Shown here: piece after piece, positions 3,657-50,739 of the stretch
Numbering within the stretch: position 1 is the first letter of the stretch
How the letters are laid out: each line of letters starts with the position of its first letter
Assembly: GCA_021774735.1 (NCBI GenBank)
Contig: JAJFIS010000050.1
Coordinates: forward strand, 1-50,739
Source of the DNA: Alphaproteobacteria bacterium
GTDB taxonomy: Bacteria; Pseudomonadota; Alphaproteobacteria; Sphingomonadales; Kordiimonadaceae
DNA: 50,739 bases
Direction: 5' to 3'
Program-made: the position numbers and the translations under genes
The notes under the pieces: generated by a model
Seen by the model: the letters and a program-made list of their open reading frames with translations, nothing else
Told to the model about the DNA's origin: nothing
Databases searched by the model: none

Positions 3657-5453
3657 ATGGCAGACGCTTTGACCGAAAAGCAAGCAGCATACCGTGTTTT
3701 AGCGCGGAAATACCGACCCAATAATTTTGACACGCTCATTGGTCAAGATGCCATGGTGCGGACGCTTTCAAATGCTATCGAGACCGACCGGTTGGCCCAT
3801 GCTTTCATTTTAACCGGTGTTCGCGGCGTGGGTAAAACCACCACCGCCCGCATTCTTGCCAAAGCGCTTAATTGTTCAGCCCATGATGGCCCTTCTGTTA
3901 ACCCTTGCGGCGAATGCGAACAATGTGTGGCTATTGCAGAATCGCGCCATGTGGATGTTATGGAAATGGATGCCGCCAGCCACACAGGGGTTGATGACAT
4001 CCGCGAGATTATCGACAGTGTACGCTATGGTCCCACGTCATCACGTTTGAAAATATATATTATCGACGAAGTGCATATGCTGTCTAAAAATGCCTTCAAT
4101 GCCCTGCTAAAAACGCTGGAAGAACCCCCCGAGCATGTGAAATTTATTTTTGCGACGACGGAAATTCGCAAACTTCCCGTGACGGTTCTATCGCGCTGTC
4201 AACGCTTCGACCTCAAGCGAGTTGAAAGCGATGTGTTAGTTGATCACTTAGCCAAAATTGTCGCCAAGGAAGGTTGCAACGCTGACGATGCGGCCCTGCA
4301 AATGATCGTTCGGGCATCAGAAGGTTCTGTGCGGGATAGCCTGTCCCTGCTCGACCAAGCCATCGCCCACGGGGCGGGAACGGTCAGCGAAGCCCAAGTG
4401 CGGGATATGCTGGGGTTGGCGGACCGGGCGCAAATTTTAGACCTGTTCAAGCATATGATGGCCGGTGAGGCCGCCGAGGCAATTACACTATTGAGAGACC
4501 AATATAATTGCGGGGCTGATCCTGCTGTAGTAATTAATGACCTTTTGGATGTTACCCATTGGCTCACCCGCCTAAAAGTGACCCCTGAAACCGGCAATGA
4601 TACCCTTGTCTCGGAGGCGGAAAAAACCCAAGGCGGTGCAATGGCTGAAAGCTTGGCCATGCCGCATCTGACCCGTGCGTGGCAAATGTTACTGAAAGGC
4701 GTGCAGGAAGTACGCCTTGCCAGTAGCCCCATTGCGGCGGCAGAAATGCTTCTTATTCGCCTTGCTTATGCCGCCAATTTGCCGAGCCCGGTTGATCTAG
4801 TGAAGCAGATTAAAGCAGGAAACGGCGCAGCTAAGCCCGTCGGTGGCGGCAATATAGCGCCTACCAATGGGAATGCGGGTGGCACCTCAAGACAATCAGT
4901 GGGACAAGCCGTGGGCCAAGGGTCAGAGGCTAAGCAACAGCCATCTACATCAGCTGCGACAGCACAAGTGCTGGCGCTTAAAGCGGGCGGTGACAGCGAC
5001 CATGCACCACATCCGCTGCCGGTCAGTTTTGAAAAAATGGTCGATCTATTTCGCCAAGAGAAAGAAGGACAATTAGCTTTTGCCCTTAGTGATCTGGTGC
5101 GATTGGTAAATTACCGCCCCGGGGCATTTTCATTAAACTTGGATGAAAAGGCTCCTGCAGGTTTGGTTATGCGGGTTAAAGATTGCTTGAAACGTTGGAC
5201 GGGCACAGATTGGCAGGTCACCATTGTGCGGGACGGCGGCGAAAGCAGTTTGCGCGAAAAAGCTGTGGCGCACCAAAAGCAATTGTTGGGCGACGCAGCT
5301 GAGGACAATTTAGTTATGGCGGTTATGGCAACCTTCCCGGGAGCCAAGATATATGCTGTGCGGGAAGATAAACCGGAAGAGCTTTTGGCTGAATCAGACG
5401 AGATGGCAGAGCATATCTATGATGATGAGCCCGTCAATGACTTCGATTTTTAA
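3657..5453 (+). CDS. dnaX: DNA polymerase III subunit tau/gamma
   Basis: DnaX is the ATPase of the clamp loader, which places the beta clamp on DNA and tethers the replicative polymerases. From the ATG at 3657 the protein has 598 aa. Walker A GVRGVGKTT is at 54-62, the zinc-module cysteines are Cys73, Cys84, Cys87 and Cys90, Walker B IIDEVHML follows, and the sensor/SRC motif is SRCQRF. The C-terminal part (from about residue 400) is a low-complexity Gly/Ala/Gln linker followed by the tau-specific domain. Upstream in-frame GTG (3642) and ATG (3645) codons exist, but GGGAG at 3647-3651 is well placed for 3657. It heads dnaX-ybaB-recR; ybaB starts 36 bp after the stop. I see no E. coli-type AAAAAAG frameshift signal. 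Confidence 0.95.
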   Translation: MADALTEKQAAYRVLARKYRPNNFDTLIGQDAMVRTLSNAIETDRLAHAFILTGVRGVGKTTTARILAKALNCSAHDGPSVNPCGECEQCVAIAESRHVDVMEMDAASHTGVDDIREIIDSVRYGPTSSRLKIYIIDEVHMLSKNAFNALLKTLEEPPEHVKFIFATTEIRKLPVTVLSRCQRFDLKRVESDVLVDHLAKIVAKEGCNADDAALQMIVRASEGSVRDSLSLLDQAIAHGAGTVSEAQVRDMLGLADRAQILDLFKHMMAGEAAEAITLLRDQYNCGADPAVVINDLLDVTHWLTRLKVTPETGNDTLVSEAEKTQGGAMAESLAMPHLTRAWQMLLKGVQEVRLASSPIAAAEMLLIRLAYAANLPSPVDLVKQIKAGNGAAKPVGGGNIAPTNGNAGGTSRQSVGQAVGQGSEAKQQPSTSAATAQVLALKAGGDSDHAPHPLPVSFEKMVDLFRQEKEGQLAFALSDLVRLVNYRPGAFSLNLDEKAPAGLVMRVKDCLKRWTGTDWQVTIVRDGGESSLREKAVAHQKQLLGDAAEDNLVMAVMATFPGAKIYAVREDKPEELLAESDEMAEHIYDDEPVNDFDF

Positions 5454-26580: not shown

Positions 26581-27465
26581 ATGCTTGATCGACCCCGCCG
26601 CACTGCTCTCTATATGCCTGCCAGCAATGCTCGCGCTTTGTCTAAAGCGGAGACTTTGAAAGCAGATAGTTTCATCTTTGATCTGGAAGATGCAGTTGCC
26701 GCTGAGGCAAAAGACTTAGCGCGCACACAGGCTGTGGAAGCGGTTAATAGCGGAAATTATGGCATGCGAGAGCTGACCATACGTATTAATGGTTTGGATA
26801 CGAAATATGTGCATGAGGATATTGCGGCTGTTGCCACATCCAATGCTGACGCTATCCTTGTTCCTAAAATTACCAGCGCCGCTGACGTGCAAGAAGTGCG
26901 GGCTATGCTCGCTAAGCATGACCGTGTGGATATGCCTCTTTGGGCGATGATAGAAACCCCGCTTGCGGTTATCAATGTTGCTGAAATTGCCAAAGAAATT
27001 GGCGCCGGTGGTGCCCTTGTTATGGGCACAAACGACTTGGAAAAAGACCTGCATGTTCGCAGCACATTAGACCGGCACGGGGTGCTGACGGCTATGTCAC
27101 TGACGGTGATAGCGGGTAGGGCTTATGGCCTTGGGCTTTTAGACGGTGTTTACGGCGACATTCATGATAGCGACGGCTTGTCACAACAATGCAAACAGGG
27201 CCGTGATTTTGGCTTTGACGGCAAAACGCTCATTCATCCATCTCAGATAGAGACCGCTAATAATGCTTACGGGCCTAGCGCCGCTGAAATAGCGGAAGCC
27301 GAAGCCACGGTGCAGGCCTTTGATAAGGCGCGGGAAGAGGGTGCCAATGTGGCCACCTTAAATGGCCGCATGGTTGAGGAATTACATGCCGCTCAGGCTG
27401 CACGTCTTTTGGCCTTTGCACGGGCAATCGCGGCCCTTGAGCAAGGTTTTAAATTAACGCCCTAA
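26581..27465 (+). CDS. CitE/Mcl-type CoA ester lyase (HpcH/HpaI aldolase family)
   Basis: A 294-aa TIM-barrel enzyme of the citrate-lyase-beta/malyl-CoA lyase family, which forms or splits CoA esters such as malyl-CoA, citramalyl-CoA or beta-methylmalyl-CoA. The N-terminus RRTALYMPASNARALSKA and the Mg-binding SFIFDLEDAVAAEAK are diagnostic, as are PKITSA and WAMIETPLAV. The C-terminal segment KTLIHPSQIE matches this family. There are no citD/citF genes beside it, so it is not part of a citrate lyase complex. A stand-alone malyl- or citramalyl-CoA lyase role is more likely. Its 3' end overlaps the convergent S9 peptidase gene by 12 bp. Confidence 0.85.
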   Translation: MLDRPRRTALYMPASNARALSKAETLKADSFIFDLEDAVAAEAKDLARTQAVEAVNSGNYGMRELTIRINGLDTKYVHEDIAAVATSNADAILVPKITSAADVQEVRAMLAKHDRVDMPLWAMIETPLAVINVAEIAKEIGAGGALVMGTNDLEKDLHVRSTLDRHGVLTAMSLTVIAGRAYGLGLLDGVYGDIHDSDGLSQQCKQGRDFGFDGKTLIHPSQIETANNAYGPSAAEIAEAEATVQAFDKAREEGANVATLNGRMVEELHAAQAARLLAFARAIAALEQGFKLTP

Positions 27466-29382
27466 ATTGTTGCTTAAGAAGGCCTCAATGGCCCTGAGGC
27501 TTTTTAGGCGACTTTCTTCAGTATCCAAAAAATGGTCGCCATTTTTAACTTTTACTTTGGTAACCGGAATTTTGTATTTTTTCAGCCGACGATACATGCT
27601 CGATGACTGTGCATAAGGAACCCGTGGGTCATCTTTGGCATGGATAAGCAATATAGGTACTTTAATCTCGCGGGCACGGTGATAGGGGGAGATTTCTTTG
27701 TCATTCACGCCTAACAGCCCCATTCGCTTTGTCCAAGCCCGGCCACCTATAAATCTTTTATCATTGGCTTTCATGTCCGGTATATTAGAAACGCCGTTAA
27801 TGCTGATGGCGCATTTATATAGATCAGGCTCTCGCACCACCCCCATTAAGGCAGCATAACCACCATAAGACCCACCCATGATGCAGATGCGCGCCGGGTC
27901 TGCTATTCCCTGATCAATCAGCCAGTGCGTGCCGTCAGTAACATCATCTTGCATGGCCCCGCCCCATTGGTGGCTGCCCGCTTTTTGGAAACTTTCACCA
28001 TAGCCGGTGGAGCCGCGAAAATTTGGCCGAAAGACAGCGTAACCACGATTGGCGAGAAACTGGACTTCATAATCATAGGACAAATCATCACGGGATGAAG
28101 GCCCCCCATGAGGCAAGATAATAGTTGGCAACCCTTTGCCACCACTGCCCTTAGGCAGGGTCAGGAAAGCGCGGATGGTGAGGCCGTCACGGGCCTGATA
28201 ATCATGGGCGGTAGTTAGGGCCATATTATCATTCACACTGTCAACACGCTCGTTAATGATATGATCAAGGGTTAGCTTCGTCTTGTTGAAACGATAAAAG
28301 GTCCCAGGCTGCGTGAGGGATTCGTGGCGAATAACCACGACATCAAGTTCTTTATTATGATAAATAAACTTTAACCAACCGCCACCTAGAACTTGGATAA
28401 GCGCTTTAGATATTTTCCTATAGTAAGGATCGCTATACTGGATCGTAGGATGATCACCGTTAATGCGGTAGCCAATCACCGTTTCAGTGCCGGGTGCATA
28501 GACAAGCCCGCTTATATCCAATTTATCATGGGAGAATAGTGTCTCGGTGGCCCTATCATCAATGAGGTCATATTTCACGATAGCATTCAGGCCATTTGCT
28601 TGTTGGTGGCGCGCGTAAGCAAAGCGAGGGTCGGCAAAAAAATGTAAAATTTCAATATCATTTTTATACCAATTTGACTGGGTTGCGTCCTGCCATTCCC
28701 CTGTTTTAGGGTTATTATATTCTGCGACAAAGTGATGGTTGCCGTAACCATAAGCCAAACGGGCTTGATGCTGTTTATCAACCTTCCACGATTGGACATA
28801 GGGGCGTGGGCTTTCGTATAACTTTCCATATCCAGTTGCCACATTCACTTTTTCGATCATATAACGCCCTTTGCCATTGCGGTCATAGGCCATAAGAAAA
28901 TGATCAGGATCATCCGGTAAAAAGCTAACTATTCCGTCTTGGATGTTGCCAACCCTACCCGAAGCGGCAGCACTGTTCATTTTGGGTTCCATCATCAAAG
29001 CGAATTTGCCAGTGTTGACATTGTAGGAAAGCATTCTGCTCTCTGCATGTCTGTGGCCCCAATTAAGTTCTGTATAACGGTAAGCAATCAGCAAATAGCT
29101 ATCATTGATCCATTTGAACCAGATAATGTCCGCTTTTTTAACGGGCGGAACTGCCTTAGGGTTATTAATGCCATTGGCATTCTTTATCACTAAATGTTTG
29201 CGCCCTTTTATGGACGAAAGATAGGCCGTCATCGTACCATTTGGCGATACTTTCAGCGCTTTGGCATGGGGTAGCTTTGCATAGGCCAAAACAGGTAAAA
29301 GCTTTGCCTTATCACTGGGAGCAGCATAGGACACAGGAGTGTAGAACAGGCATAATATTATAAGTGCGGGAAAATACCTCAT
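27454..29382 (-). CDS. S9 family serine peptidase (prolyl oligopeptidase/acylaminoacyl peptidase type), array member 1
   Basis: A 642-aa exported serine peptidase. A signal peptide (MRYFPALIILCLFYTPVSYA) precedes a beta-propeller region (about 30-380) and a C-terminal alpha/beta-hydrolase domain. The triad is readable: Ser505 in GGSYGGYAA, Asp585 in KDDPRVPY and His617 in NGDHFLD. The oxyanion region is LPTIILPHGGPSSRDD. Such enzymes release short peptides or N-acylated residues from oligopeptides. It is the last of four tandem homologues on this strand, and its start overlaps the stop of the interrupted member 2 by 4 bp. The 3' end overlaps the convergent CitE-like gene. Confidence 0.9.
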   Translation of the reverse strand: MRYFPALIILCLFYTPVSYAAPSDKAKLLPVLAYAKLPHAKALKVSPNGTMTAYLSSIKGRKHLVIKNANGINNPKAVPPVKKADIIWFKWINDSYLLIAYRYTELNWGHRHAESRMLSYNVNTGKFALMMEPKMNSAAASGRVGNIQDGIVSFLPDDPDHFLMAYDRNGKGRYMIEKVNVATGYGKLYESPRPYVQSWKVDKQHQARLAYGYGNHHFVAEYNNPKTGEWQDATQSNWYKNDIEILHFFADPRFAYARHQQANGLNAIVKYDLIDDRATETLFSHDKLDISGLVYAPGTETVIGYRINGDHPTIQYSDPYYRKISKALIQVLGGGWLKFIYHNKELDVVVIRHESLTQPGTFYRFNKTKLTLDHIINERVDSVNDNMALTTAHDYQARDGLTIRAFLTLPKGSGGKGLPTIILPHGGPSSRDDLSYDYEVQFLANRGYAVFRPNFRGSTGYGESFQKAGSHQWGGAMQDDVTDGTHWLIDQGIADPARICIMGGSYGGYAALMGVVREPDLYKCAISINGVSNIPDMKANDKRFIGGRAWTKRMGLLGVNDKEISPYHRAREIKVPILLIHAKDDPRVPYAQSSSMYRRLKKYKIPVTKVKVKNGDHFLDTEESRLKSLRAIEAFLSNNLGR

Positions 29383-31376
29383 TCATCTGCCAACTGTTGA
29401 TCTAAGAATCTAATCAAGGCTTTGAAATATGCGGTCTCTGATGAAGCGGTATCAAGGCCATGACCACCTTCGTCTAGTTCAATATATTTGCTTAGCTTGC
29501 CGAGTTTCCTTAGGCGATCATGCATCTGGCGAGATTGTCTTGTTGGCACCCGTTGGTCATCTTCCGCAGCGACCAATAATATAGGGGCACTAATTTTTGA
29601 TGCTTGGTGGTAAGGGGATACCTCTTTGTCATTAACGCCTTCAAGCGCCATGCTTTTGGCCCAGTATGAACCGCCGATGGTGTTATTATAGGTGTCAGTT
29701 GCTTTCATATCCAACAGGTTGGCGACGCCGTTAACACTTACTGCACATTTATAAAGGCCCTGTTGCTTAATCACCCCCATTAAGGCAGCGTAGCCGCCGT
29801 AAGAACCACCAACAATACATATGCGGTCGGGGTCGGCGATGCCTTCATCGATGGCCCAGCGGGTAGCATCGGTAACATCATCTTGCATCGTGCCGCCCCA
29901 TTGGTGCCTACCGCGAGACCTGTGCTTGCGGCCAAAGCCAGTAGACCCTCGGAAGTTAGGCTGCAGAACCGCATAACCACGACTGGCGAGCAATTGCACT
30001 TGGGCATTAAATCTATTCACATAGTGGGCTGGTGGCCCACCGTGGACCATGATCACCATCGGTAATTTTTTATCGTCAGTGTCTTTGGGAATGGTCAGTA
30101 AGCTTGGAATATCGAAATCATCACGGGCTTTGATTGTAATATTTGTCATGTGACTCATTTGACTGGGCATCATACCCGGCATGGCTTCACCTAGGGGGTT
30201 TAAGGCTTTGGCCTTCATATCGAGCATGTAAAATACACCGGCATCCGTGTCGCTATATGTTTTAATGATATAGCGTTTGGCGGCTTTTGACTGGGAGACA
30301 ATATAATTGGATGTCTCGGGCAGTGTGCGGTCAACAAAAGCCTGTAATTTGGCGTGATATTTGCTAAAATAATGCAGTTTAAATCCACCGTCATAATAGG
30401 CGACAGCAACGGGCTTTCCGCCAGCAGTTTGCAAGTTTTCAGGGGATTCTGCGGTTTGTGAAGCATAAACAAGATGGCTGGCGTCTACTTTTTCGTGGGC
30501 GAAAATTTCTTTTAAAACCTCTCCAGTATCAAGGTTCATATAAAAGAAACCTCTGGTGCCATATTTAGTTGGTCCTTTTACGATAGCCTTTAAAGGGTCT
30601 TCGGTGAAAGCAACTGGATAAAAGCCTTTTTTATACCAGTCTAAATTATAAGCATTATGCCATTTTTTATCACCACCAAAATAGGAAGCGGTTGGTTCAT
30701 TGGTGACATTATCATTGCCCGAGGCAAAGCGGATAACATGTTGTTGGTCAACCATGTAATGTTGGGCGCCGCGCCTTCCAGCCAAAACTCTTTTGCCTCG
30801 GCCTGAATTTAAATTAAGCCGTCGCACTTCATAGGCACCATTGAAATTAGTATCGATCGCTTGCAAAACATAGTTGGGCTTATCGGGCAAAAAGTCGATT
30901 ATTCGGTCATGGAACTGTGCAATTACAGCATCGCCTTTTAATTTTGAAGGTCCCGCCGAACTGCCGGAGGCTTTAAATACTCAGCGGAATTTCTTTTTCT
31001 TAAGGTTATAAAGGGCCAGACGTGTTTCAGAAATTGTACCGCGAATATTTTGTCTTTTGTTATTAAACATATAGGAAAGCAAGATGCGGTCACCGTCCAC
31101 CCAGCGATACCAACGCAGATTTGCATGCTTTACCGCAGGAATAAGATATTGCTTGTTGATGTCTAAGTCACGAATAATCAGTGTGCGACGCCCTTTGTTT
31201 TGGGAGGTGAAGGCGAGATATTGGCCATCGCTGGATAAGGCTACATCGCTCATGGCGGGCCATTGGGCGAAGGCAGAAATGGGTATTTTAGCTGCATCTC
31301 CCGCAGTAACAGCTGGCAGGCCAACGGCCATGAATATTGCTAATATGCCTATTTTCAACTTGGTTGTTATTTTCAC
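29379..31376 (-). pseudogene. S9 family peptidase interrupted by a single in-frame TGA, array member 2
   Basis: Read from ATG 31376 this frame gives a signal peptide (MKITTKLKIGILAIFMAVGLPAVTAG) and the start of a propeller. It meets a TGA at 30981-30983 after KKKKFR and continues in the same frame, with 30 open codons and then the remaining 503 residues to 29379. There is no frameshift. The total of about 665 codons equals the neighbours (642-657 aa), and the downstream part keeps a full hydrolase domain with GGSYGGYAA, AEDDQRVP and EGGHGLD. The stop probably replaces a Trp codon (TGG to TGA) at residue 132. Either it is a recent nonsense pseudogene, a sequencing error, or a product made by readthrough. 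A restart would yield a protein without an export signal. Confidence 0.85.
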
Positions 31377-31431
31377 CTTTAACCCCTCAATTATTCAGTT
31401 TGCCGCACCTTCATCTTTTCCCCGATTTGTT

Positions 31432-33387
31432 TCAATCGCCGATATGTTTGTCTAGAAATTTTTCCATCTCGCGCAGCATGGTCAGGCGCGAAGCCCCTGT
31501 ATTCATCGTGTGGCCGCCGCCTTCGATCAGCACATAACCTGTGTCGACTTTCCGCTTTTTTAGTTTCTTATAGAGATCTTTTGATTGTTTAAAGGGTACC
31601 CGAGTGTCATTTCGGGAGGACATGAGCAGCACCGGTACTTTTATGCGCTTCGCTTGATAATAGGGTGAAATGTCTTTCTTTGACGCCCCTTCAAGCTGCA
31701 TTGCTTTTGACCAGCTACGGCCACCGATAAATTTTCTATCCCGAATGACCATCGCAGGAATATTCATCACACCGTTGATGGAAATGGCGCATTTATAGAG
31801 GCCCGGCTCTTTAATAGTGCCAAAAATAGCTGCGTAACCACCGTAAGAAGCCCCCGCGATACAGACTTTGTCAGGATTGGAATAACCTTCCTTGATCATC
31901 CATTTTGTTGCGTCGGTAATATCATCCTGCATCAAACCGCCCCATTGTTTGCGCCCCATGATGTAATGTTTATAGCCCAGCCCGGTGGAACCGCGAAAGT
32001 TTGGCCGTAGCACCACATAGCCCCGGCTGACCAAAAACTGGGTCCACCAATCCCAATCAGCGGTATCACGGGAATGAGGCCCGCCGTGGGGCAAAATAAC
32101 AGTGGGTAAATCTTTAGGGTCCTTGCCCAAGGGTAGGGTTAAGTAAGCTGGGATGACGCTGCCATCGCGGACAGTAATTTCCACTGCCTTGGTAGGAGCC
32201 ATTAAATCGGGGTCAATTTTTCGATAATGCAGAGCCAGTTGCACAGCCTTTTTGGCCTCCCTGTCATACCAATAATATACACCGGGGTCCTTGTCAGAGG
32301 ATGATAAAACCATGTAGGTTTCTTTGCCTCTTGCTTTATCAATAATTTGGTTACTATTACCTTTATAGGCATTATCGATAGTTTTTTGGACAATATTCAT
32401 TTGAGGGTCAAAATATTTGATCCGCCAAAAATCATCCATATAGGCAACGCCCGCAGGCTGGCCCGTGTCAGGGTGATCAATTACATGATCTACATCATAT
32501 TTTTCATTTTCAAAGACAGTATCAAGAATCTCACCGGTCATCACATCAAGCTTTACCAATTTGTCAGTGCCCCAGCCGGGTGAGCCAGAGGCGTAAACGA
32601 CGTTGGAGTTTTCAGTCACAGCCTCAACATCATATAATTTACGCCAGTCACTTTTAGTAATATTGATCCACTCTCCCGACTTATTATCTTTAAAAATCAT
32701 CTTCCATTTTAATTTGTCATAACCGGTGCCAAGAACGGCTTCGTGGTTCGGGCCTACATACCAGTTTTGGATTCCTCGTTGTTGAATCACCTCATATTTA
32801 AACTTACCAGTATAAATATTGATTTTGCGCAATTCAGCTCGGCCATCCATATCAGCATCGATAGTCAGCAAAAAATGATCAGGGTCAGTTGGTAAAATAT
32901 CTGAAATATTACTTTGATGTTGCCCAATACCCCCTTCAACATAACCGGCGCGGGTAATGCCAGCCTCTTTTTTGCCCCGTACGACCCAAATAAAATCTGA
33001 TGTGTCATGGCGATTAACCGAGGCAAGCCGGGTCATGGATGCATTTTGGACACGCCTTCCTAAGAAGCTGTATACAATCAATAATCGGTCATCATTGGCC
33101 CAATAGAAATTTTGAACCTCGGCTTTTTCCATTAGAGGCATGATGACACGGTTTTTGCCTGAAATATGCAAGGCAATAACAACGCGCCGCCCGCGTAAAT
33201 TGATCAGGGCGGCTATATTTTCGCCGTCCGGTGATAGCTTTGGTCGATCAAAGTCGGGCAGGGAAGCGAAAGCCTCAATTGGAATATCCGATGGCTTTCC
33301 GCTCTGCTGTGCCGACGCGCCTGAAACCGAGCCAAGCATTATGAGCATCCAGAGCACACAAGCTGTATAAAATCTATTCTGTGTCAT
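31432..33387 (-). CDS. S9 family serine peptidase, array member 3
   Basis: A 651-aa exported peptidase starting at ATG 33387; GGAG precedes it at 33395-33398, and the in-frame TTG at 33399 lies in that ribosome binding site. The signal peptide ends around GSVSGASAQQ. The propeller is followed by the hydrolase domain with GASYGGYAA (nucleophile Ser), SSRNDTRVPF (Asp) and EGGGHTMNTG (His). Note GAS rather than GGS at the nucleophile elbow, a trait shared with member 4. Large parts, especially the mature N-terminus and the last 250 residues, are almost identical to member 4, pointing to a recent tandem duplication. Confidence 0.9.
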   Translation of the reverse strand: MTQNRFYTACVLWMLIMLGSVSGASAQQSGKPSDIPIEAFASLPDFDRPKLSPDGENIAALINLRGRRVVIALHISGKNRVIMPLMEKAEVQNFYWANDDRLLIVYSFLGRRVQNASMTRLASVNRHDTSDFIWVVRGKKEAGITRAGYVEGGIGQHQSNISDILPTDPDHFLLTIDADMDGRAELRKINIYTGKFKYEVIQQRGIQNWYVGPNHEAVLGTGYDKLKWKMIFKDNKSGEWINITKSDWRKLYDVEAVTENSNVVYASGSPGWGTDKLVKLDVMTGEILDTVFENEKYDVDHVIDHPDTGQPAGVAYMDDFWRIKYFDPQMNIVQKTIDNAYKGNSNQIIDKARGKETYMVLSSSDKDPGVYYWYDREAKKAVQLALHYRKIDPDLMAPTKAVEITVRDGSVIPAYLTLPLGKDPKDLPTVILPHGGPHSRDTADWDWWTQFLVSRGYVVLRPNFRGSTGLGYKHYIMGRKQWGGLMQDDITDATKWMIKEGYSNPDKVCIAGASYGGYAAIFGTIKEPGLYKCAISINGVMNIPAMVIRDRKFIGGRSWSKAMQLEGASKKDISPYYQAKRIKVPVLLMSSRNDTRVPFKQSKDLYKKLKKRKVDTGYVLIEGGGHTMNTGASRLTMLREMEKFLDKHIGD

Positions 33388-33421
33388 AATTATCTCCAAG
33401 CTCTCAACTGATCATTTGGCT

Positions 33422-35377
33422 TCAATCGCCGATGTGTTTGTCTAGAAATTTTTCCATCTCGCGCAGCATGGTTAGGCGCGAAGCCCCTGTATTCATCGTG
33501 TGGCCGCCGTCTTCGATCAGCACATAGCCTGTGTCGACTTTCCGCTTTTTTAATTTCTTATACAGATTTCGAGATTGTTTATAGGGCACCCGACTATCGT
33601 TTTTTGACGAGAATAACAGTACCGGTGCATGAATTTTCTTAGATTGGTGATAAGGCGAAATATCTTTCTTTGACGCCCCCTCTAGCCGCATGGATTTGGA
33701 CCAACTGCGTCCGCCAATAAATTTTTTATCCCTTAACACCATGGAGGGAATATTCATCACGCCGTTGATGGAAATGGCGCATTTATAGAGGCCCGGCTCT
33801 TTGATAGTGCCAAAAATGGCCGCGTAACCACCATATGAAGCACCAGCGATACACACTCGTTCAGGGTCTGTGATACCTTCGCTGATCATCCATTTTGTTG
33901 CGTCGGTAATGTCGTCTTGCATCAAGCCGCCCCATTGTTTGCGCCCCATGATGTAATGTTTATAGCCAAGGCCAGTGGAGCCCCGGAAATTTGGTCGCAG
34001 CACGGCATAGCCACGGCTGACCAAAAACTGGGTCCACCAATCCCAGTCAGCGGTATCACGGGAATGAGGCCCGCCGTGAGGCAAAATAACTGTGGGTAAA
34101 TCTTTAGGGTCCTTGCCCAGTGGCAGGGTTAAGTAAGCTGGGATGATGCTGCCATCGCGGACCTTTATTTCTACTGCCTTTGTAGGGGCCATTAAATTGG
34201 GATCAATCTTGCGATAACGCAGCCCAATAGAACGGGTTTTTTTCGTCTTTACATCATGAAGGAAATAAATACCGGGCTCTCGGTCTGAGGTCGATAAAAT
34301 CAGGTAAATATTTTTACCGCGGGCTTTGTCAATGATCCGATTATTTTGGCCTTGAGTAATTTTGTCGACACTTTGTTGGACGAGGTCTAATTGCGGGTCG
34401 AAATATTTTATGCGCCAAAAGTCATCCATATAGGCTGCCCCCGCCGGCTGGCCGGTGTCCGGGTGGTGGACAACATGATCGATATCATATTCATTATCGC
34501 TGAAAACTGTTTCAATAATCTCGCCAGAAATAACATCTAATTTGACCAATTTATCAGTCCCATAGTTTTGGGAGCCGGTCGCAAAAACAATATTCGAATT
34601 TTGAGTTACCGACACGATGGAGTAATTATTGCGCCATTCTTTCTTAGTAATATTAACCCATTTCCCTGTATTTTTATCCTTGAAAATCATTTTGCGTTTT
34701 GATTTGTGAAAGCCAGTTCCTAAGCTGATTGTATGATCAGGTGCCGCATACCAATGTTGAATGCCAGTATGGGGAAAGAGCATATCTTTATACTCACCCG
34801 TATAGACATTAATCTTGCGCAGCTCAGCGCGGCCATCTCTGTCGGCATCAATGTTCAATAAAAAATGATCGGGATCATCGGGTAAGATATCGGTGATTTG
34901 ATCTTGAAATTGTGCAGAACCTCTGCCAATGGCGCGTTTGCGGCGTAGAGTATCGTCTTTTTTGTCCTTTACGGCCCAAATAGAATCTGAGGCATCATGA
35001 CGATTAACGGAAGCAAGACGAGTCATACCTGCACCGCGTAAATGTCTGCCTACAAGGCTATAAGAAACTAATAGTCGATCATTATTCGCCCAATAAAAGT
35101 TTTTCACTTCCGAGCCAATTGCGGGATACATAATAACGCGGTTTTTGCCTGAAATATGCTGGACAACTACAATAAGCCGTCCCTTTAGCTTCATTAAGGC
35201 TGCAATATTTTCGCCATCAGGAGACAGCTTTGGTCGATCAAAGTCTGGCAGGGAAGCGAAAGCCTCAATTGGAATATCCGATGGCTTTCCGCTTTGCTGC
35301 GCCCAAGTGCTTGAAGCCGAGCCAAGCATTAGAAAAACGCACAAAAGGCGTGATAATAAAAAGACTTTCTGGTGCAT
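33422..35377 (-). CDS. S9 family serine peptidase, array member 4 (first gene of the array)
   Basis: A 651-aa exported peptidase beginning at ATG 35377, six bases after GGGGGG; an in-frame TTG at 35395 is less likely. Signal peptide (KVFLLSRLLCVFLMLGSASSTWA), beta-propeller, then hydrolase domain with GASYGGYAA, SSKNDSRVPY and EDGGHTMNTG as triad motifs. The segment SGKPSDIPIEAFASLPDFDR just after the signal is identical to member 3, as is much of the catalytic domain, while the middle of the propeller differs clearly. It is the promoter-proximal gene of the array; the gap to member 3 is only 34 bp, so at least members 4 and 3 are co-transcribed. Confidence 0.9.
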   Translation of the reverse strand: MHQKVFLLSRLLCVFLMLGSASSTWAQQSGKPSDIPIEAFASLPDFDRPKLSPDGENIAALMKLKGRLIVVVQHISGKNRVIMYPAIGSEVKNFYWANNDRLLVSYSLVGRHLRGAGMTRLASVNRHDASDSIWAVKDKKDDTLRRKRAIGRGSAQFQDQITDILPDDPDHFLLNIDADRDGRAELRKINVYTGEYKDMLFPHTGIQHWYAAPDHTISLGTGFHKSKRKMIFKDKNTGKWVNITKKEWRNNYSIVSVTQNSNIVFATGSQNYGTDKLVKLDVISGEIIETVFSDNEYDIDHVVHHPDTGQPAGAAYMDDFWRIKYFDPQLDLVQQSVDKITQGQNNRIIDKARGKNIYLILSTSDREPGIYFLHDVKTKKTRSIGLRYRKIDPNLMAPTKAVEIKVRDGSIIPAYLTLPLGKDPKDLPTVILPHGGPHSRDTADWDWWTQFLVSRGYAVLRPNFRGSTGLGYKHYIMGRKQWGGLMQDDITDATKWMISEGITDPERVCIAGASYGGYAAIFGTIKEPGLYKCAISINGVMNIPSMVLRDKKFIGGRSWSKSMRLEGASKKDISPYHQSKKIHAPVLLFSSKNDSRVPYKQSRNLYKKLKKRKVDTGYVLIEDGGHTMNTGASRLTMLREMEKFLDKHIGD

Positions 35378-35684
35378 AAGACCCCCCGAGAGCAATGCGA
35401 TATCTAATAATACTAAAGTTCAGTTGCCGTGAGGATAACCACCATTGAGCAACAAACGCAACTCTGAATTATGTTTTTTTGAAGCCGTTGTAGACTGGTT
35501 ATGCCTCTTTCCCGAATATTGAATGAGGCATAGGCTTAATTTTGATTTGGCAAAATTATTGACCAACATTCATTTCCTTTCTTGCGTGAGGGGCAGCAAC
35601 GTCTTAAGAATAAAGGCAACTGTCTTTTAGTGCGCCGAATTAAGGCGGTGCATTTTACAAAGCTGATTTTCAAGGGAATATCCA
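35378..35684. other. Divergent intergenic region between the S9 array and sdhC
   Basis: This 307-bp AT-rich stretch must hold the promoters of both the S9 array (left) and sdhCDAB (right). The clearest structure is an 8-bp inverted repeat, TATGCCTC (35500-35507) and GAGGCATA (35525-35532), with a 17-base spacer, which could be an operator or an RNA hairpin. Closer to sdhC, TGCGCC and GGCGGTGCA (35631-35653) can also pair. I could not assign convincing -35/-10 boxes and see no gene here. Confidence 0.4.
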
Positions 35685-39544: not shown

Positions 39545-40663
39545 TTGGCAGGCAGAAGACATCACATTATTCCTCAATTCATCATTCGAAATTTTGCTGA
39601 TCAAACTTCTGCAGGAAAAAATAAATTATTTCAAATAAGGAAAGGTAGTGATCAAGCATTTTGCACCAGAGTTGAAGATGTTTTTGTAGAACGTGATTTT
39701 TATGAGCTAGATGAAGGTATCCTTGATGAAGTTATTACAAATCAGGCAGAGCCTAAGATGTTAGCCATTTATGATGAATTGATCTCGATGGATGGAGATG
39801 TTTCCAAGTATGACGCCAACATATGGCGTCTAATTCAACACATTACTGTTCGAAACAAGCTCTTAAGGATGGCGATTGGGAATCTGTTTGAGAAAGTAAC
39901 TGGGGATATACTCGATCAATTTACTAAAGTAACTTTTCAGAGAAAAATCACAGATAATATCATTAGAGATAGAGACTTCTTAAATACATTGTTGCAAGCT
40001 AAGAGGCCTGATCTTGTAGGTCTTCCGAATGAGTTTAGGCAATTGTTCATTGATGAAGTTTTAAATGATGCACAACTTTATAATAATGTATTTCAGGATG
40101 TTGGATTAGGCATTCGAAATTATATACTTAAGATTCGTCCCATAATATTGAAATTACTCAAGGGTATCCCTGAGCTTCATAACGAACAATTATTATTGCT
40201 TTATAACGATGAGAGTAGACTAAAATGGCCAAAACTGAAAATGAATTGGGAAGTAAAAAAGTTTAAATACCCACTTATTCTTTCTGATAATATGATCTTG
40301 GTAAGTTACTCTGAAAAGAGGTTTCTACCTAACTTGATAACAGATGGAATTGAAGGAATAAAATCTATTATCTTTCCTATAGCATCAAACAAATTGATTA
40401 TTGGACGTGTTAGTGGTGGCAAGACAAACATAGATTTTGATAATGTGAATTCCATGTTTTTAAGTTACTGTTTTAAATCATGCATAGCAGAGAATAGTAG
40501 ATCTCTTGATGTAGGTGAAACAAGGGTGGGAATTTCATTTGATGATTGGATCAAAGCTACAGTAGAAACAGCTCTGGTTAATGCTGAATGTACTGCAGAA
40601 AATGTTTCAAAAAGAATTCGAGAAAACATTCAAGATCACTTTTTCAAAATGGCTATGGAATAA
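39545..40663 (+). CDS. DUF4238 domain-containing protein, AT-rich and probably acquired
   Basis: A 372-aa soluble protein starting at TTG 39545 (AAAGG nine bases upstream). The N-terminus RRHHIIPQFIIRNFAD is the signature of DUF4238, whose members share an HHxxPQFxLRxF motif. Function is unknown, although the His-rich motif suggests metal binding or a nuclease-like role, which is inference. The gene is strikingly AT-rich with codon use (AAA, TTA, ATA, AAT) unlike sdhB upstream and the phosphatase gene downstream. Together with the flanking repeats this suggests horizontal insertion between two chromosomal genes. No transposase or integrase is attached. Confidence 0.75.
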   Translation: MAGRRHHIIPQFIIRNFADQTSAGKNKLFQIRKGSDQAFCTRVEDVFVERDFYELDEGILDEVITNQAEPKMLAIYDELISMDGDVSKYDANIWRLIQHITVRNKLLRMAIGNLFEKVTGDILDQFTKVTFQRKITDNIIRDRDFLNTLLQAKRPDLVGLPNEFRQLFIDEVLNDAQLYNNVFQDVGLGIRNYILKIRPIILKLLKGIPELHNEQLLLLYNDESRLKWPKLKMNWEVKKFKYPLILSDNMILVSYSEKRFLPNLITDGIEGIKSIIFPIASNKLIIGRVSGGKTNIDFDNVNSMFLSYCFKSCIAENSRSLDVGETRVGISFDDWIKATVETALVNAECTAENVSKRIRENIQDHFFKMAME

Positions 40664-40671
40664 TGTAGCAT

Positions 40672-41250
40672 ATGCAAATATTAATTGTCGATAAAGCGAA
40701 TGTGGTGAAAAGGGCAGAAGCCTTTCGGCCCACGCATGCTGTGGTGTTCCAAACCGCTGAGGACGACACCGACCCTATCATCGGGGTGCTGCCGAAAAAC
40801 GCTTACCGCACCAAGATCAACAAGAAAAACAATGCCTCGCTCAAAACCATGACGCCTTTGATCGAATTTGTCCGCAATGTACCGGCGGATGCGCGGCTGT
40901 TGTTTCGCTGCGACGCTGGGGTTTCCCGCTCTGCCACCGGGGCGCTTTTGGCCATGTGCCTACATGCGCCCGACATAGACATTGAAGACCATTTTAAGAT
41001 TATGCGCGCCAGCTGGCCCCATGTGGTGCCGCAGCGCGGGATGTTGCGCCTCACCGATGATATTCTGGGGCTGAAGGGGCGGCTGGTGCTGGCCTCCCAG
41101 CATGATACCGCTGAACGCATGCTGAGCTTGCCGATCCTTGAATTTAACGCGGATGACATAGCAAGAGAGATCAATCTGCCGAACGTAGAGCCAAAATCAT
41201 GGCGGCGCATTTTCAAGTCGTGGTTATTGAAGCTTGCCCATAAAATTTAG
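40672..41250 (+). CDS. Predicted dual-specificity/tyrosine protein phosphatase (COG5350-like)
   Basis: A 192-aa protein with a cysteine-phosphatase P-loop, Cys80-Asp-Ala-Gly-Val-Ser-Arg86 followed by Ser (CX5RS), preceded by LLFRC on a beta strand. This is the layout of the small predicted tyrosine phosphatases found in many alphaproteobacteria. The rest of the fold (RMGP-type N-terminal strand, helical middle, MLRLTDDILGL after the P-loop) fits too. Its base composition returns to that of the chromosomal core, in contrast to the DUF4238 gene ending 8 bp upstream. Substrate unknown; a phosphoprotein or phosphoinositide-like target are both possible. Confidence 0.75.
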   Translation: MQILIVDKANVVKRAEAFRPTHAVVFQTAEDDTDPIIGVLPKNAYRTKINKKNNASLKTMTPLIEFVRNVPADARLLFRCDAGVSRSATGALLAMCLHAPDIDIEDHFKIMRASWPHVVPQRGMLRLTDDILGLKGRLVLASQHDTAERMLSLPILEFNADDIAREINLPNVEPKSWRRIFKSWLLKLAHKI

Positions 41251-47760: not shown

Positions 47761-48053
47761 GGGGAGTTGAGGTTGAATATTAAATTTAAATCTATGTTTA
47801 CGTTAGTAACTGTGGAAATTATTATAAGTTAATTTAATTAAAGTAATAATTCCCACTTTCATCACGAAGGCATCCATTGGTAAGGTGTATCTCTGTTTTA
47901 TAATTAATGTCGTTAATGAAAAAGCTCATGTAATAAGTTGCGAAAGACTTGTAATCAAAAAATCAGACACAATTTAAAGAAAATCAATAGTCAACCAAAA
48001 GATTATTGATTACTATTTTAATTAGTACGCCATATAAATTGGGGGAGGCTCTG
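47761..48053. other. AT-rich intergenic region before the helicase gene
   Basis: About 290 bp with an abrupt fall in GC after the reductase stop codon. No gene is seen. GGCATCCATTGGTAA at 47867-47881 closely resembles the last codons of the preceding gene (GGCATCCACTGGTAG, 47746-47760) and may be a duplicated relic. The helicase ribosome binding site GGGGGAGG is at 48041-48048. Confidence 0.5.
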
Positions 48054-50615
48054 ATGGCTTTTAAAAAGACTAGTCATGATATTTCAATTCCGGCATCTCC
48101 AGAAGAACTGTTCCTTGAGTTAAGCGGCCGCAAATATCCCAATGTTTTTCTCCATCAAGGTGAAATGCTGAGAGCATATACCGAGGAAGGGATTGGGGAA
48201 GCAGATGTATCTCTTGAACTGCCAACAGGTAGTGGCAAAACGCTTGTTGGGCTTTTAATCGCTGAATGGAGAAGACGTAAATTTAAAGACAAAGTTGTTT
48301 ATCTCTGCCCAACTATACAGCTGGTTAATCAGGTAGTAGAAGAGGCCAAAAAAAATTATGGACTTAATGTTATTGGATATACAGGGTCTGCTCGTAAATA
48401 CACTGCAGAACAAAAAGCAAACTATGGCTTCAATAATGCCGTTTGCGTAACAACATATAGCAGCCTCTTCAATTCCAATCCATTTTTTAAAAATGCTGAT
48501 TTACTAATATTAGATGATGCTCATGCATGTGAAAATTATCTTGGGAAATATTGGTCACTCTCCGTTAAGCGGCTCAATGAAGAACATCAAGAATTACACA
48601 AACAAATTGCAAGTTTAATTTCTCCCTATTTAAGGCCTGCTGATAAAGATAGAGTGATCGGCCGCTTCCCCAAACCAGCTGATATTTCATGGGTAGAAAA
48701 ATTACCCACGAGGCATTTTAATGAAATACGCGATAGTCTTTACACATTATTAGAATATCAAACTGCTGGAAATGATTTAGGCTATGCATGGCGTACTTTG
48801 AGGGATAACTTCCATTCGTGTCATCTTTTTATTTCATCAACAGAAATTTTAATTCGACCAGCTCTTTTCCCTACATGGGAGCTGGCGGCTTTTTCAAGCC
48901 CACAGCAAAGGTTGTTTATGTCGGCGACTCTCAGCAAAGGGGGAGATTTAGAGAGGATTACTGGTAGAAAAAAAATCCATAAAATTCAGGCCCCTGAATC
49001 ATTTAAACTTCATGGAATTGGCCGGCGTTTCTTCATGTTTCCAGATATAACCTTAGACAAAGATGATTGTGCCGGTCTGGCGCAGGAATTAATTAAAATG
49101 AGTGGGCGTGCGCTATATCTCGTTCCTAGCTCTAAGCACAGAGAGCAGGTCATTGCCGAAATCAAATTAATTCCTGATGTAAAAATATTTGATGCCAAAT
49201 CCATTGAAAAATCTAAAGAGGCATTTATAGCTGAAGATTTGTCAGTTGCGGTTTTGGCAAATAGGTATGATGGAATAGATTTTCGTGGAGATGCTTGTCG
49301 CCTACTGTTTGTTGAGGGTTTGCCAAGGGCTATGAATTTAAACGAGCGATTTTTGATGGACAAAATGGCTGCTTCGATCATATTTAATGAGCGCATTCAA
49401 ACACGAGTGGTGCAAGCAGTAGGTCGGTGCACTCGCAGTATGGAGGATTATTCAGCAGTTGTGATTTTAGGTAATGACATTCCAGATTACTTAATAAATG
49501 ATAACAATACAAAGCACTTACATCCAAATCTTCAAGCTGAACTTAAATTTGGCAAAGAACAATCAAATGGTGCCACAAAGAATGACTTCGTTGAAAATAT
49601 GGAAACTTTCTTAGTTCAAGGGGAGGATTGGATTGAAGTTAATAATGAAATCATTAACACAAGAAATAAGTCTGAGTTGATCGAATTTCCTAACATTAAA
49701 AATTTACAAAATAGTGTATCAGATGAAATCGACTATCAAAGGCATGTTTGGAATGGTGATTTTGAGAAGGCAATTGAAGCAGCTGAAAAAGTCCTAGGGC
49801 ATTTAAATGGCCCGAAGAACTTAAGAGGTTATCGTGCGTGGTGGCATTATTTAGCTGGATCAGCGAGTGAATTGGCTAGTGCAGAAAATTCTGCTTATAC
49901 TTCTAAAGCAGAAGGTCATTATGTAAACGCTAGAGAAGCAGCCCCCACTCTTCAATGGCTTATCCCACTATGCAATACAAAAGTGACCGCTCCTGTTGTT
50001 GGATCGGCAGCACCATGTGATCTCATTCAAATAAATAAAATTGAGGAAATGCTTTCTCATATAGGCTCAAGAAACCATAAAAAATTTGACGCTCAGGTTC
50101 AATTAATTAGAGACCATATCTTTTCAAATGAGTTTAAATTTTTTGAGAAAGGTCTCAAAGATCTTGGATCACTATTAGGCTTTGAAAGTTATAATGATGA
50201 GAGTGACGGAGCTCCTGATGGTTGGTGGGTTTCTGGAGATCAATGTATTGTATTTGAAGCTCATAGTAATGCAAAAGCCGGATCTGTTATTGGCTCTAAA
50301 AAAGCAAGGCAAGTTGAAAGTCACCCTAAGTGGTTAATATCAAATGGTAAAGTTATTAGTGGTTGTTCTATTACGAGTGCGTTAATTACTCCATGTATTA
50401 CCATTAAAAAGGAAGCGCATGGCCTTCTGGGCGACACTTGTTATTTAAACTTAGAGAAGTTTAGAAGTTGGGTATCCGGAGTGATTATTGTTATTGGGAA
50501 GATAAGAAAAGATTTTAATCAGCCGGGCGATCTTGTTTGGCAAACGGAAGCCTTGATAACTTTAAGTAAACATAACTATTTATGTTCAGAGATAATTACG
50601 AGCCTATCTTTTTAA
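48054..50615 (+). CDS. DEAD/DEAH-type helicase with C-terminal PD-(D/E)xK-like region, possibly 3'-truncated
   Basis: An 853-aa superfamily-2 helicase from ATG 48054 (strong GGGGGAGG upstream). A Q-like motif FLHQGEML is at 32-39, Walker A PTGSGKT at 57-63, DDAH (motif II) at 154-157, FMSATL (motif III), and motif VI QAVGRCTR at 454-461. The C-terminal third has no named domain I recognise, but P721-D722 ... E735-A-H737 in a predicted strand (CIVFEAHSNAK) resembles a degenerate PD-(D/E)xK nuclease core. Helicase-nuclease proteins of this kind often act against foreign DNA. The gene is very AT-rich compared with the chromosome. The stop (50613-50615) coincides with the apparent IS256 boundary, so the native C-terminus may be lost. 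Confidence 0.75.
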   Translation: MAFKKTSHDISIPASPEELFLELSGRKYPNVFLHQGEMLRAYTEEGIGEADVSLELPTGSGKTLVGLLIAEWRRRKFKDKVVYLCPTIQLVNQVVEEAKKNYGLNVIGYTGSARKYTAEQKANYGFNNAVCVTTYSSLFNSNPFFKNADLLILDDAHACENYLGKYWSLSVKRLNEEHQELHKQIASLISPYLRPADKDRVIGRFPKPADISWVEKLPTRHFNEIRDSLYTLLEYQTAGNDLGYAWRTLRDNFHSCHLFISSTEILIRPALFPTWELAAFSSPQQRLFMSATLSKGGDLERITGRKKIHKIQAPESFKLHGIGRRFFMFPDITLDKDDCAGLAQELIKMSGRALYLVPSSKHREQVIAEIKLIPDVKIFDAKSIEKSKEAFIAEDLSVAVLANRYDGIDFRGDACRLLFVEGLPRAMNLNERFLMDKMAASIIFNERIQTRVVQAVGRCTRSMEDYSAVVILGNDIPDYLINDNNTKHLHPNLQAELKFGKEQSNGATKNDFVENMETFLVQGEDWIEVNNEIINTRNKSELIEFPNIKNLQNSVSDEIDYQRHVWNGDFEKAIEAAEKVLGHLNGPKNLRGYRAWWHYLAGSASELASAENSAYTSKAEGHYVNAREAAPTLQWLIPLCNTKVTAPVVGSAAPCDLIQINKIEEMLSHIGSRNHKKFDAQVQLIRDHIFSNEFKFFEKGLKDLGSLLGFESYNDESDGAPDGWWVSGDQCIVFEAHSNAKAGSVIGSKKARQVESHPKWLISNGKVISGCSITSALITPCITIKKEAHGLLGDTCYLNLEKFRSWVSGVIIVIGKIRKDFNQPGDLVWQTEALITLSKHNYLCSEIITSLSF

Positions 50616-50739
50616 CTGTGTAAGTGGCCATGATATACTCCATGAAAGGGAGATTTATTATGGCTATCAAGCAAGAAGTTATCGATGAACTATTGAAGGA
50701 CTACAAAAACCCTGAAGACCTTTTGGGTGAAGAGGGTCT
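50612..50739 (+). mobile_element. Left end of an IS256-family insertion sequence
   Basis: The sequence ACTGTGTAAGTGGCC right after the helicase stop resembles the outer end of IS256-type terminal repeats (consensus containing TGTGTAA). An IS256-type transposase start follows about 45 bases further on. The right end and target-site duplication are outside the window, so the precise first base of the element is uncertain by several bases. Confidence 0.65.
50660..50739 (+). CDS. IS256-family transposase, N-terminal fragment, runs off the window
   Basis: The first 26 codons are present: MAIKQEVIDELLKDYKNPED followed by LLGEEG. This is the standard opening of IS256-family (mutator-type DDE) transposases. 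AAGGGAG at 50646-50652 is the ribosome binding site. The reading frame is open to the window edge; whether the element is complete cannot be seen. Confidence 0.85.
   Translation, partial: MAIKQEVIDELLKDYKNPEDLLGEEG

What the first reader, a model, noticed from the sequence alone, without database searches (positions are those of the whole stretch)
48054..50615. AT-rich helicase with a possible degenerate nuclease domain: candidate defence gene
SF2 helicase motifs are clear. The C-terminal third carries a PD...ExH pattern (721-737) in a strand context that resembles PD-(D/E)xK enzymes. The gene is compositionally foreign, isolated between a core gene and an IS, and no methyltransferase accompanies it. 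Single-gene helicase-nuclease proteins acting against phage or plasmids would fit.
Basis: inference. Interest (0 to 1): 0.6.

Follow-up and report, generated by a model that had tools for sequence, protein, structure and literature searches.

The report
Phage-defence helicase-nuclease with relocated lysine
This gene encodes a relative of Hna, a known bacterial anti-phage enzyme that joins a DNA helicase to a DNA-cutting domain, and it belongs to a separate branch in which the key lysine of the cutting site appears to have moved to a neighbouring helix.

Summary
The ORF and the PD...ExH motif are real. The protein is a distant homologue (23% identity) of Hna, the single-gene abortive-infection helicase-nuclease of Sinorhizobium meliloti. 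Both PADLOC PDC-S28 models match it over nearly its full length (373 and 363 bits); Hna itself scores 400 and 1020 on the same two models. An AlphaFold2 model (pLDDT 90) finds the Hna monomer as best PDB match (Z 36). The last 200 residues alone match Hna's nuclease domain (Z 20.3, 191 aligned), then BspD6I, FokI and HindIII.

The nuclease is probably not degenerate. Hna needs K729; this protein has H737 there. Of 113 aligned homologues, the 83 without that lysine (His 64, Tyr 17, Phe 2) all have a lysine at the start of the next helix (window K750), and none of the 30 that keep the first lysine has the second. Lysine migration of this kind is known in other PD-(D/E)XK families; I found no report of it in Hna. 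The tree needs one or two switches, so 83 is not a count of independent cases. Activity was not tested and geometry not measured.

An IS256-like element has entered the gene's 3' end at 50600, replacing its last residues.

The parts
48041..48048 (+). likely ribosome-binding site GGGGGAGG
   Evidence: sequence read; by consensus only
48054..50599 (+). native part of the Hna-like helicase-nuclease gene (residues 1-848)
   Evidence: IS boundary
48219..48242 (+). Walker A, LPTGSGKT (residues 56-63)
48513..48524 (+). DExH-box, DDAH (residues 154-157)
49413..49436 (+). motif VI, QAVGRCTR (residues 454-461)
50013..50599 (+). C-terminal PD-(D/E)XK-fold nuclease domain (from residue 654)
50145..50147 (+). 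E698, conserved Glu of the first core helix (113 of 113)
   Evidence: helix
50214..50219 (+). P721-D722, motif II (D722 in 113 of 113)
50256..50264 (+). E735-A-H737, motif III; H737 stands where Hna has the catalytic K729
   Evidence: role of K729 from PMC13381803
50301..50303 (+). K750, proposed relocated catalytic lysine (motif IV, start of helix 748-763)
50600..50739 (+). left end of an IS256-like element inserted in the gene, cut by the contig end; it supplies the last residues and the stop
   Evidence: the IS256 name is recalled

Best explanation
A single-gene anti-phage effector of the Hna kind: a DinG/XPD-like SF2 ATPase fused to a C-terminal PD-(D/E)XK exonuclease. By analogy with Hna, the ATP-bound protein stays quiet and a phage product (an SSB in Hna) releases the nuclease, which digests single-stranded 3' ends and aborts the infection. 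In this subfamily the metal site is E698, D722 and E735, and the lysine that positions the attacking water comes from the next helix (K750) instead of the third strand, where His, Tyr or Phe now stands. Shown here: homology, fold, full-length architecture, conservation and the exclusive lysine pattern. Inferred: nuclease activity, the catalytic role of K750, defence function, trigger and regulation.
For: PDC-S28 373.5 and 362.8 bits over nearly the full length, the family to which S. meliloti Hna itself belongs. Best PDB match by sequence and by fold is Hna; nuclease domain alone Z 20.3 to Hna residues 644-839. E698 and D722 invariant in 113 of 113, E735 in 112 of 113. 83 of 83 homologues without the motif III lysine have Lys at the K750 site, and 0 of 30 with it do; a second alignment gives 76 of 76 and 0 of 7. 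Motif III to IV lysine migration has precedents (PMC1913061, PMC1189080, passages). Relatives on plasmids and viral contigs and beside restriction, SIR2-like and ABC-three-component genes more often than genes 5.5 kb or more away.
Against: K729A alone inactivates Hna, so the His at this place could mean a dead enzyme. The lysine place changed only once or twice on the tree, so the pattern is few events. The dimer-loop residues and R36 of Hna are not conserved. In the window and in L137 the upstream or flanking genes are ordinary, aconitase genes are neighbours of 3 loci genes, and the six other window ORFs scanned have no PADLOC match. This copy has an IS in its 3' end. No activity test.
Confidence: 0.7

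Rival explanations
1. Pseudo-nuclease: with the catalytic lysine lost, the C-terminal domain only binds DNA or a partner, and the helicase carries the function. K750 is a DNA-contacting residue.
For: K729A abolishes the Hna exonuclease (PMC13381803); 83 of 113 homologues lack that lysine, with His, Tyr or Phe in its place.
Against: The carboxylates E698 and D722 stay invariant and E735 nearly so, which a dead site would not need; K750 is present in 83 of 83 while the old position varies and changed nine times on the tree.
Confidence: 0.18
2. A repair or plasmid-maintenance helicase of the DinG/XPD kind, not a defence gene.
For: DinG, CasDinG and XPD are the next best folds; relatives lie on many plasmids; the 68% relative lies among ordinary genes.
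Against: NCBIfam DinG-related model 28.5 bits against a cutoff of 547.7; patchy presence, 6 of 196 related genomes at E <= 1e-20, own included; DinG matches do not cover the nuclease domain; defence genes next door in many loci.
Confidence: 0.08
3. This particular copy is dead or dying: the IS insertion at the 3' end has removed the natural C-terminus. This can be true together with the best explanation for the family.
For: The IS starts at 50600 inside the ORF; the ORF is 8 residues shorter than that of its nearest relative L002.
Against: The frame is otherwise intact and all motifs are kept; the model is confident to the end; the tail is variable, 855-886 aa in complete relocated-lysine homologues apart from L071 with 814.
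Confidence: 0.25

Closest known systems
Hna of Sinorhizobium meliloti (PDB 9yhn, 9ykj, 10uj; PADLOC PDC-S28)
   Same: Single gene, SF2 helicase plus C-terminal PD-(D/E)XK fold, full-length structural match Z 36.1, P, D and E of the nuclease motif.
   Different: 23% identity; separate subfamily on a long branch; His at the K729 place and Lys on the next helix; dimer-loop residues and R36 not conserved.
PD-(D/E)XK families with a migrated lysine (DUF506, DUF790, DUF1626; COG4636/Tt1808; the YhgA-like exchange)
   Same: Motif III lysine missing and a basic residue at motif IV, in the YhgA-like case with a reciprocal exchange inside the family (PMC1913061 and PMC1189080, passages).
   Different: Those are other families, not compared with the window by any search here; none of them is described as Hna.
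DinG / CasDinG / XPD helicases
   Same: Helicase fold, Z about 16 to 19.
   Different: DinG matches end near residue 523 of the model; NCBIfam DinG-related models far below cutoff.

Membership tests
Hna (PDC-S28) | Full-length match to the PADLOC models that match S. meliloti Hna | tested here: met
   373.5 and 362.8 bits, residues 9-819 and 5-789; Hna 1020 and 400
Hna (PDC-S28) | SF2 helicase and C-terminal PD-(D/E)XK-fold domain in one chain | tested here: met
   models; Hna best match, Z 36.1 and 20.3
Hna (PDC-S28) | P712, D713, E727 of the nuclease site | tested here: met
   P721, D722, E735
Hna (PDC-S28) | Catalytic lysine K729 on the third strand | tested here: not met
   H737; Lys instead at 750. 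So filed as an Hna-like sister subfamily, not as canonical Hna
Hna (PDC-S28) | Dimer-loop residues T30, D31, P34 and R36 | tested here: not met
   R26, K27, N30, F32 in the alignment; Q39 is kept as Q35. At this identity the loop alignment is unsure (one search places it differently)
Hna (PDC-S28) | 3'-5' ssDNA exonuclease, ATP-controlled, abortive infection triggered by phage SSB | not testable with these tools
   needs bench work
Hna (PDC-S28) | No iron-sulphur cluster | not tested
   cysteine pattern not examined
DinG/YoaA housekeeping helicase | Reaching the curated NCBIfam cutoff | tested here: not met
   28.5 bits against 547.7 for dinG_rel; YoaA 13.6 against 680
[quoted passage not shown]
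   secondary structure; matches to Hna, BspD6I, FokI, HindIII
PD-(D/E)XK nuclease fold | A lysine in the active site | tested here: inconclusive
   K750 is exclusive and invariant among 83 homologues, but its place in space was not measured

The most novel reading that the evidence does not exclude
The window protein represents a second, mechanistically distinct kind of Hna: an active exonuclease whose catalytic lysine moved from strand to helix within one defence family, with a different dimer or ATP control and perhaps a different phage trigger. The 4 of 113 homologues with Lys on the strand and His at the helix site would be the mirror image of the same lysine-histidine exchange.
Probability: 0.4. 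Interest if true: 0.65.

Novelty: new variant of a known kind. Interest (0 to 1): 0.5.

Why it matters
The Hna biochemistry that I saw (2026) is of one protein. A widespread relative branch looks catalytically broken by the usual motif (402 related stretches of any subfamily were found in a collection of 84,980 species genomes), so annotation by motif would call many of its members degenerate. If K750 is the catalytic lysine, these are active defence nucleases, and the family offers a natural test of how an active site moves: both arrangements, and near neighbours of the switch, exist in living sequences.

Tried and rejected
The search for related loci with the single protein gave 24 pattern stretches and no relative; the alignment query worked. 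A search for a literature name of PDC-S28 gave one survey paper, listing only. IbfA was checked as a possible named relative and rejected: it is an ATPase-TOPRIM protein (PMC12111858, passages). The other half of the IS-interrupted gene was sought as the IS end next to the target-site bases; 0 matches in the own genome. A duplicated 3' end of the upstream gene, guessed by eye, was not reported by the repeat finder. An empty site in relatives could not be shown: the upstream SDR protein has no match at E <= 1e-100 in the other 28 family genomes.

Rows dropped before the lysine count: 8 new loci (L091, L122, L131-L136; ORF under 600 aa) and the weak helicase-only matches among L007-L019; of the 115 aligned, L118 and L120 end before the motif, leaving 113. 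One of the 113 (L024) is a piece of a gene broken by an IS91-type element. The sample leans towards the window's branch, because the query alignment A1 held seven relocated-lysine proteins and one other, and one search kept the best 80 of 402; so 83 to 30 is no estimate of frequency, and only the exclusiveness counts.

The neighbour comparison is crude: ORFs were called by length, 140 nearest genes of 77 loci (47,940 aa) against 140 genes at least 5.5 kb away from 66 loci (38,643 aa), and PADLOC output lists families, not genes (337 against 76). Pfam was run on the near set only.

The 2023 paper that discovered Hna was not seen; what is said of it comes through PMC13381803 (abstract; parts 1 to 3 of 9 of the text; passages) and PMC12445080 (passages). 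Papers on a lysine or histidine variant of Hna were looked for (listings) and by terms inside PMC13381803 ('lysine' 0, 'histidine' 0). 'Not reported' is limited to these.

Full report
What is there. The ORF at 48054-50615 encodes 853 residues with clear SF2 helicase motifs and the P721-D722 ... It is the only match in its genome at E <= 0.001 and much more AT-rich than the rest of the window: 38.1% against 50.4% G+C, 0 of 905 equal windows as low. Pfam recognises only the helicase.

The IS is in the gene. The last 140 bases of the window occur at 8 places in the genome, own place included, at 98-100% identity. In the six other copies that could be compared, exact identity stops at base 50600, or 50599 in one of them, inside codon 849. 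So the IS256-like element has replaced the natural end of the gene: the nearest relative L002 has 861 residues, this one 853. Homologues vary in this tail, and the model stays confident to the end, so function may survive; this is not known. The contig ends in the IS, so what lies downstream is unknown.

What it is. Both PADLOC models of the candidate family PDC-S28 match over nearly the full length, 373.5 and 362.8 bits. The Hna protein of S. meliloti pSymA (locus L031, 845 aa from the GTG at 3836; its residues T30, D31, P34, R36 and Q39, read, agree with the published numbering) scores 400 and 1020 on the same two models, so PDC-S28 covers Hna. Sequence search of the PDB finds the Hna chain first (10uj, with 9yhn and 9ykj; E 4e-30). 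The AlphaFold2 model from 83 sequences (mean pLDDT 90.4, pTM 0.86) finds the Hna monomer first by structure: Z 36.1 over 751 residues, rmsd 9.2, and Foldseek E 7e-36. DinG, CasDinG and XPD follow, over the helicase part. Residues 654-853 modelled alone (pLDDT 96.4) match Hna residues 644-839 at Z 20.3 and rmsd 2.8 over 191 of 200 residues, then BspD6I (11.2), FokI (10.2) and HindIII (7.9). The nuclease fold is therefore well supported.

The lysine. In Hna, K729A alone abolishes the exonuclease (PMC13381803). The aligned residue here is H737. I aligned 115 homologues from related genomes, plasmids, species genomes and viral contigs; 113 cover the motif. In 83 the motif III lysine is absent (His 64, Tyr 17, Phe 2), and every one has a lysine aligned with K750, near the start of the next helix (748-763). 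In 30 the motif III lysine is present, and none has a lysine at the second site (Asp 11, Glu 7, His 4, Tyr 3, Ala 2, Asn, Thr, Met 1 each). A second MAFFT alignment of the window and 82 of the loci gives 76 of 76 and 0 of 7. E698 and D722 are invariant in 113 of 113, E735 in 112 of 113 (one Gln, L097). Lysine migration from motif III to motif IV is described for several families of this fold, with the suggestion that it fills a similar place in space (PMC1913061, passages; PMC1189080, passages). The spacing in the window, 13 residues, equals that of K48 to D61 in the Hjc numbering quoted there. I conclude that the site has probably been rebuilt and not lost. The geometry itself was not measured, because the tools give no coordinates.

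How many events. A tree of 113 rows on columns up to residue 640, so without the nuclease motifs (IQ-TREE quick search, LG+G4), separates 98 rows, the window's subfamily, from Hna proper on a branch of 1.27 (SH-aLRT 100). Fifteen of the 98 keep the lysine on the strand. The lysine place needs two changes on the tree, and one is not ruled out; the motif III residue needs nine. So the pattern rests on one or two switches, followed by strict keeping of K750 while the old position drifted among His, Tyr and Phe. The window and L002 form a pair (100) within a starred group of 54.

Is it defence. The subfamily and its Hna relatives are mobile and patchy. 230 of 72,556 plasmid records match, at most 45% identical among those listed; 12 viral contigs match, 6 of them over most of the protein; 1 of 50,697 phage records matches, a Salmonella contig at 23.5%. 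Related genomes: 6 of 196 at E <= 1e-20, own included (which counts 19 of 196 at E <= 0.001); class 6 of 385; phylum 6 of 398; these samples overlap. A relocated-lysine copy (L024, gene broken by an IS91-type element in that record) recurs on plasmids of 5 of 5,426 E. coli genomes and on no chromosome. Among the 140 nearest neighbour genes of 77 loci, PADLOC and Pfam find type I methyltransferases (6 genes for one model), specificity subunits (5), SIR2-like (4), ABC-three-component CTD7 (3) and HsdR N-terminus (3); among 140 genes at least 5.5 kb away no PADLOC model hits more than one. Single loci agree: beside a HaeIII-family endonuclease and a methylase in Nostoc, near an ABC-three-component set in Peribacillus (a strand-lysine relative) and near a cytosine methyltransferase and Vsr in S. 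meliloti GR4 (an Hna-proper relative). Against this, aconitase genes are among the neighbours three times, and the 68% relative L137 lies between GAPDH, MFS and Mur-ligase genes. In the window the upstream genes look like core genes (argH and lysA by recalled likeness, SDR), and the six other window ORFs scanned have no PADLOC match.

Mechanism. By analogy with Hna (PMC13381803): a 3'-5' ssDNA exonuclease held back by ATP binding and dimerisation and released by a phage SSB, leading to abortive infection. Two points differ here. The residues of the Hna dimer loop and R36 are not conserved, only Q39 is (at this identity the loop alignment is unsure, and one search places this stretch differently), so the control may differ. 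And the catalytic lysine is expected on the helix. Neither is tested.

Verdict. A known kind of system (Hna), in a sister subfamily with a probable relocation of the active-site lysine that I did not find described in the searches made. New variant of a known kind; interest 0.5.

Noticed in passing
50600-50739: IS256-like element present at 8 places in the genome, own place included; several copies lie at contig ends, so it probably breaks the assembly.
   Followed up: partly
39545-41250: Second AT-rich island: a DUF4238 gene (33% G+C) and a 192-aa ORF without Pfam match; no PADLOC match for either.
   Followed up: partly
27454-35395: Four consecutive minus-strand S9 prolyl-oligopeptidase-family genes of lower G+C, next to a DUF885 gene and an M2 (ACE-like) peptidase gene: a peptidase cluster.
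   Followed up: partly
L095, L119, L123, L023: Four homologues carry Lys on the strand and His at the helix site, the mirror image of the window's arrangement; on the tree three of them group together and L023 groups with two other strand-lysine rows.
   Followed up: partly
L024: E. coli plasmid copy interrupted by an IS91-type element; the C-terminal part is 99-100% identical on plasmids of 5 of 5,426 E. coli genomes.
   Followed up: partly
L097: The only one of 113 with Gln in place of the motif III Glu, in a Trichodesmium bin.
   Followed up: no
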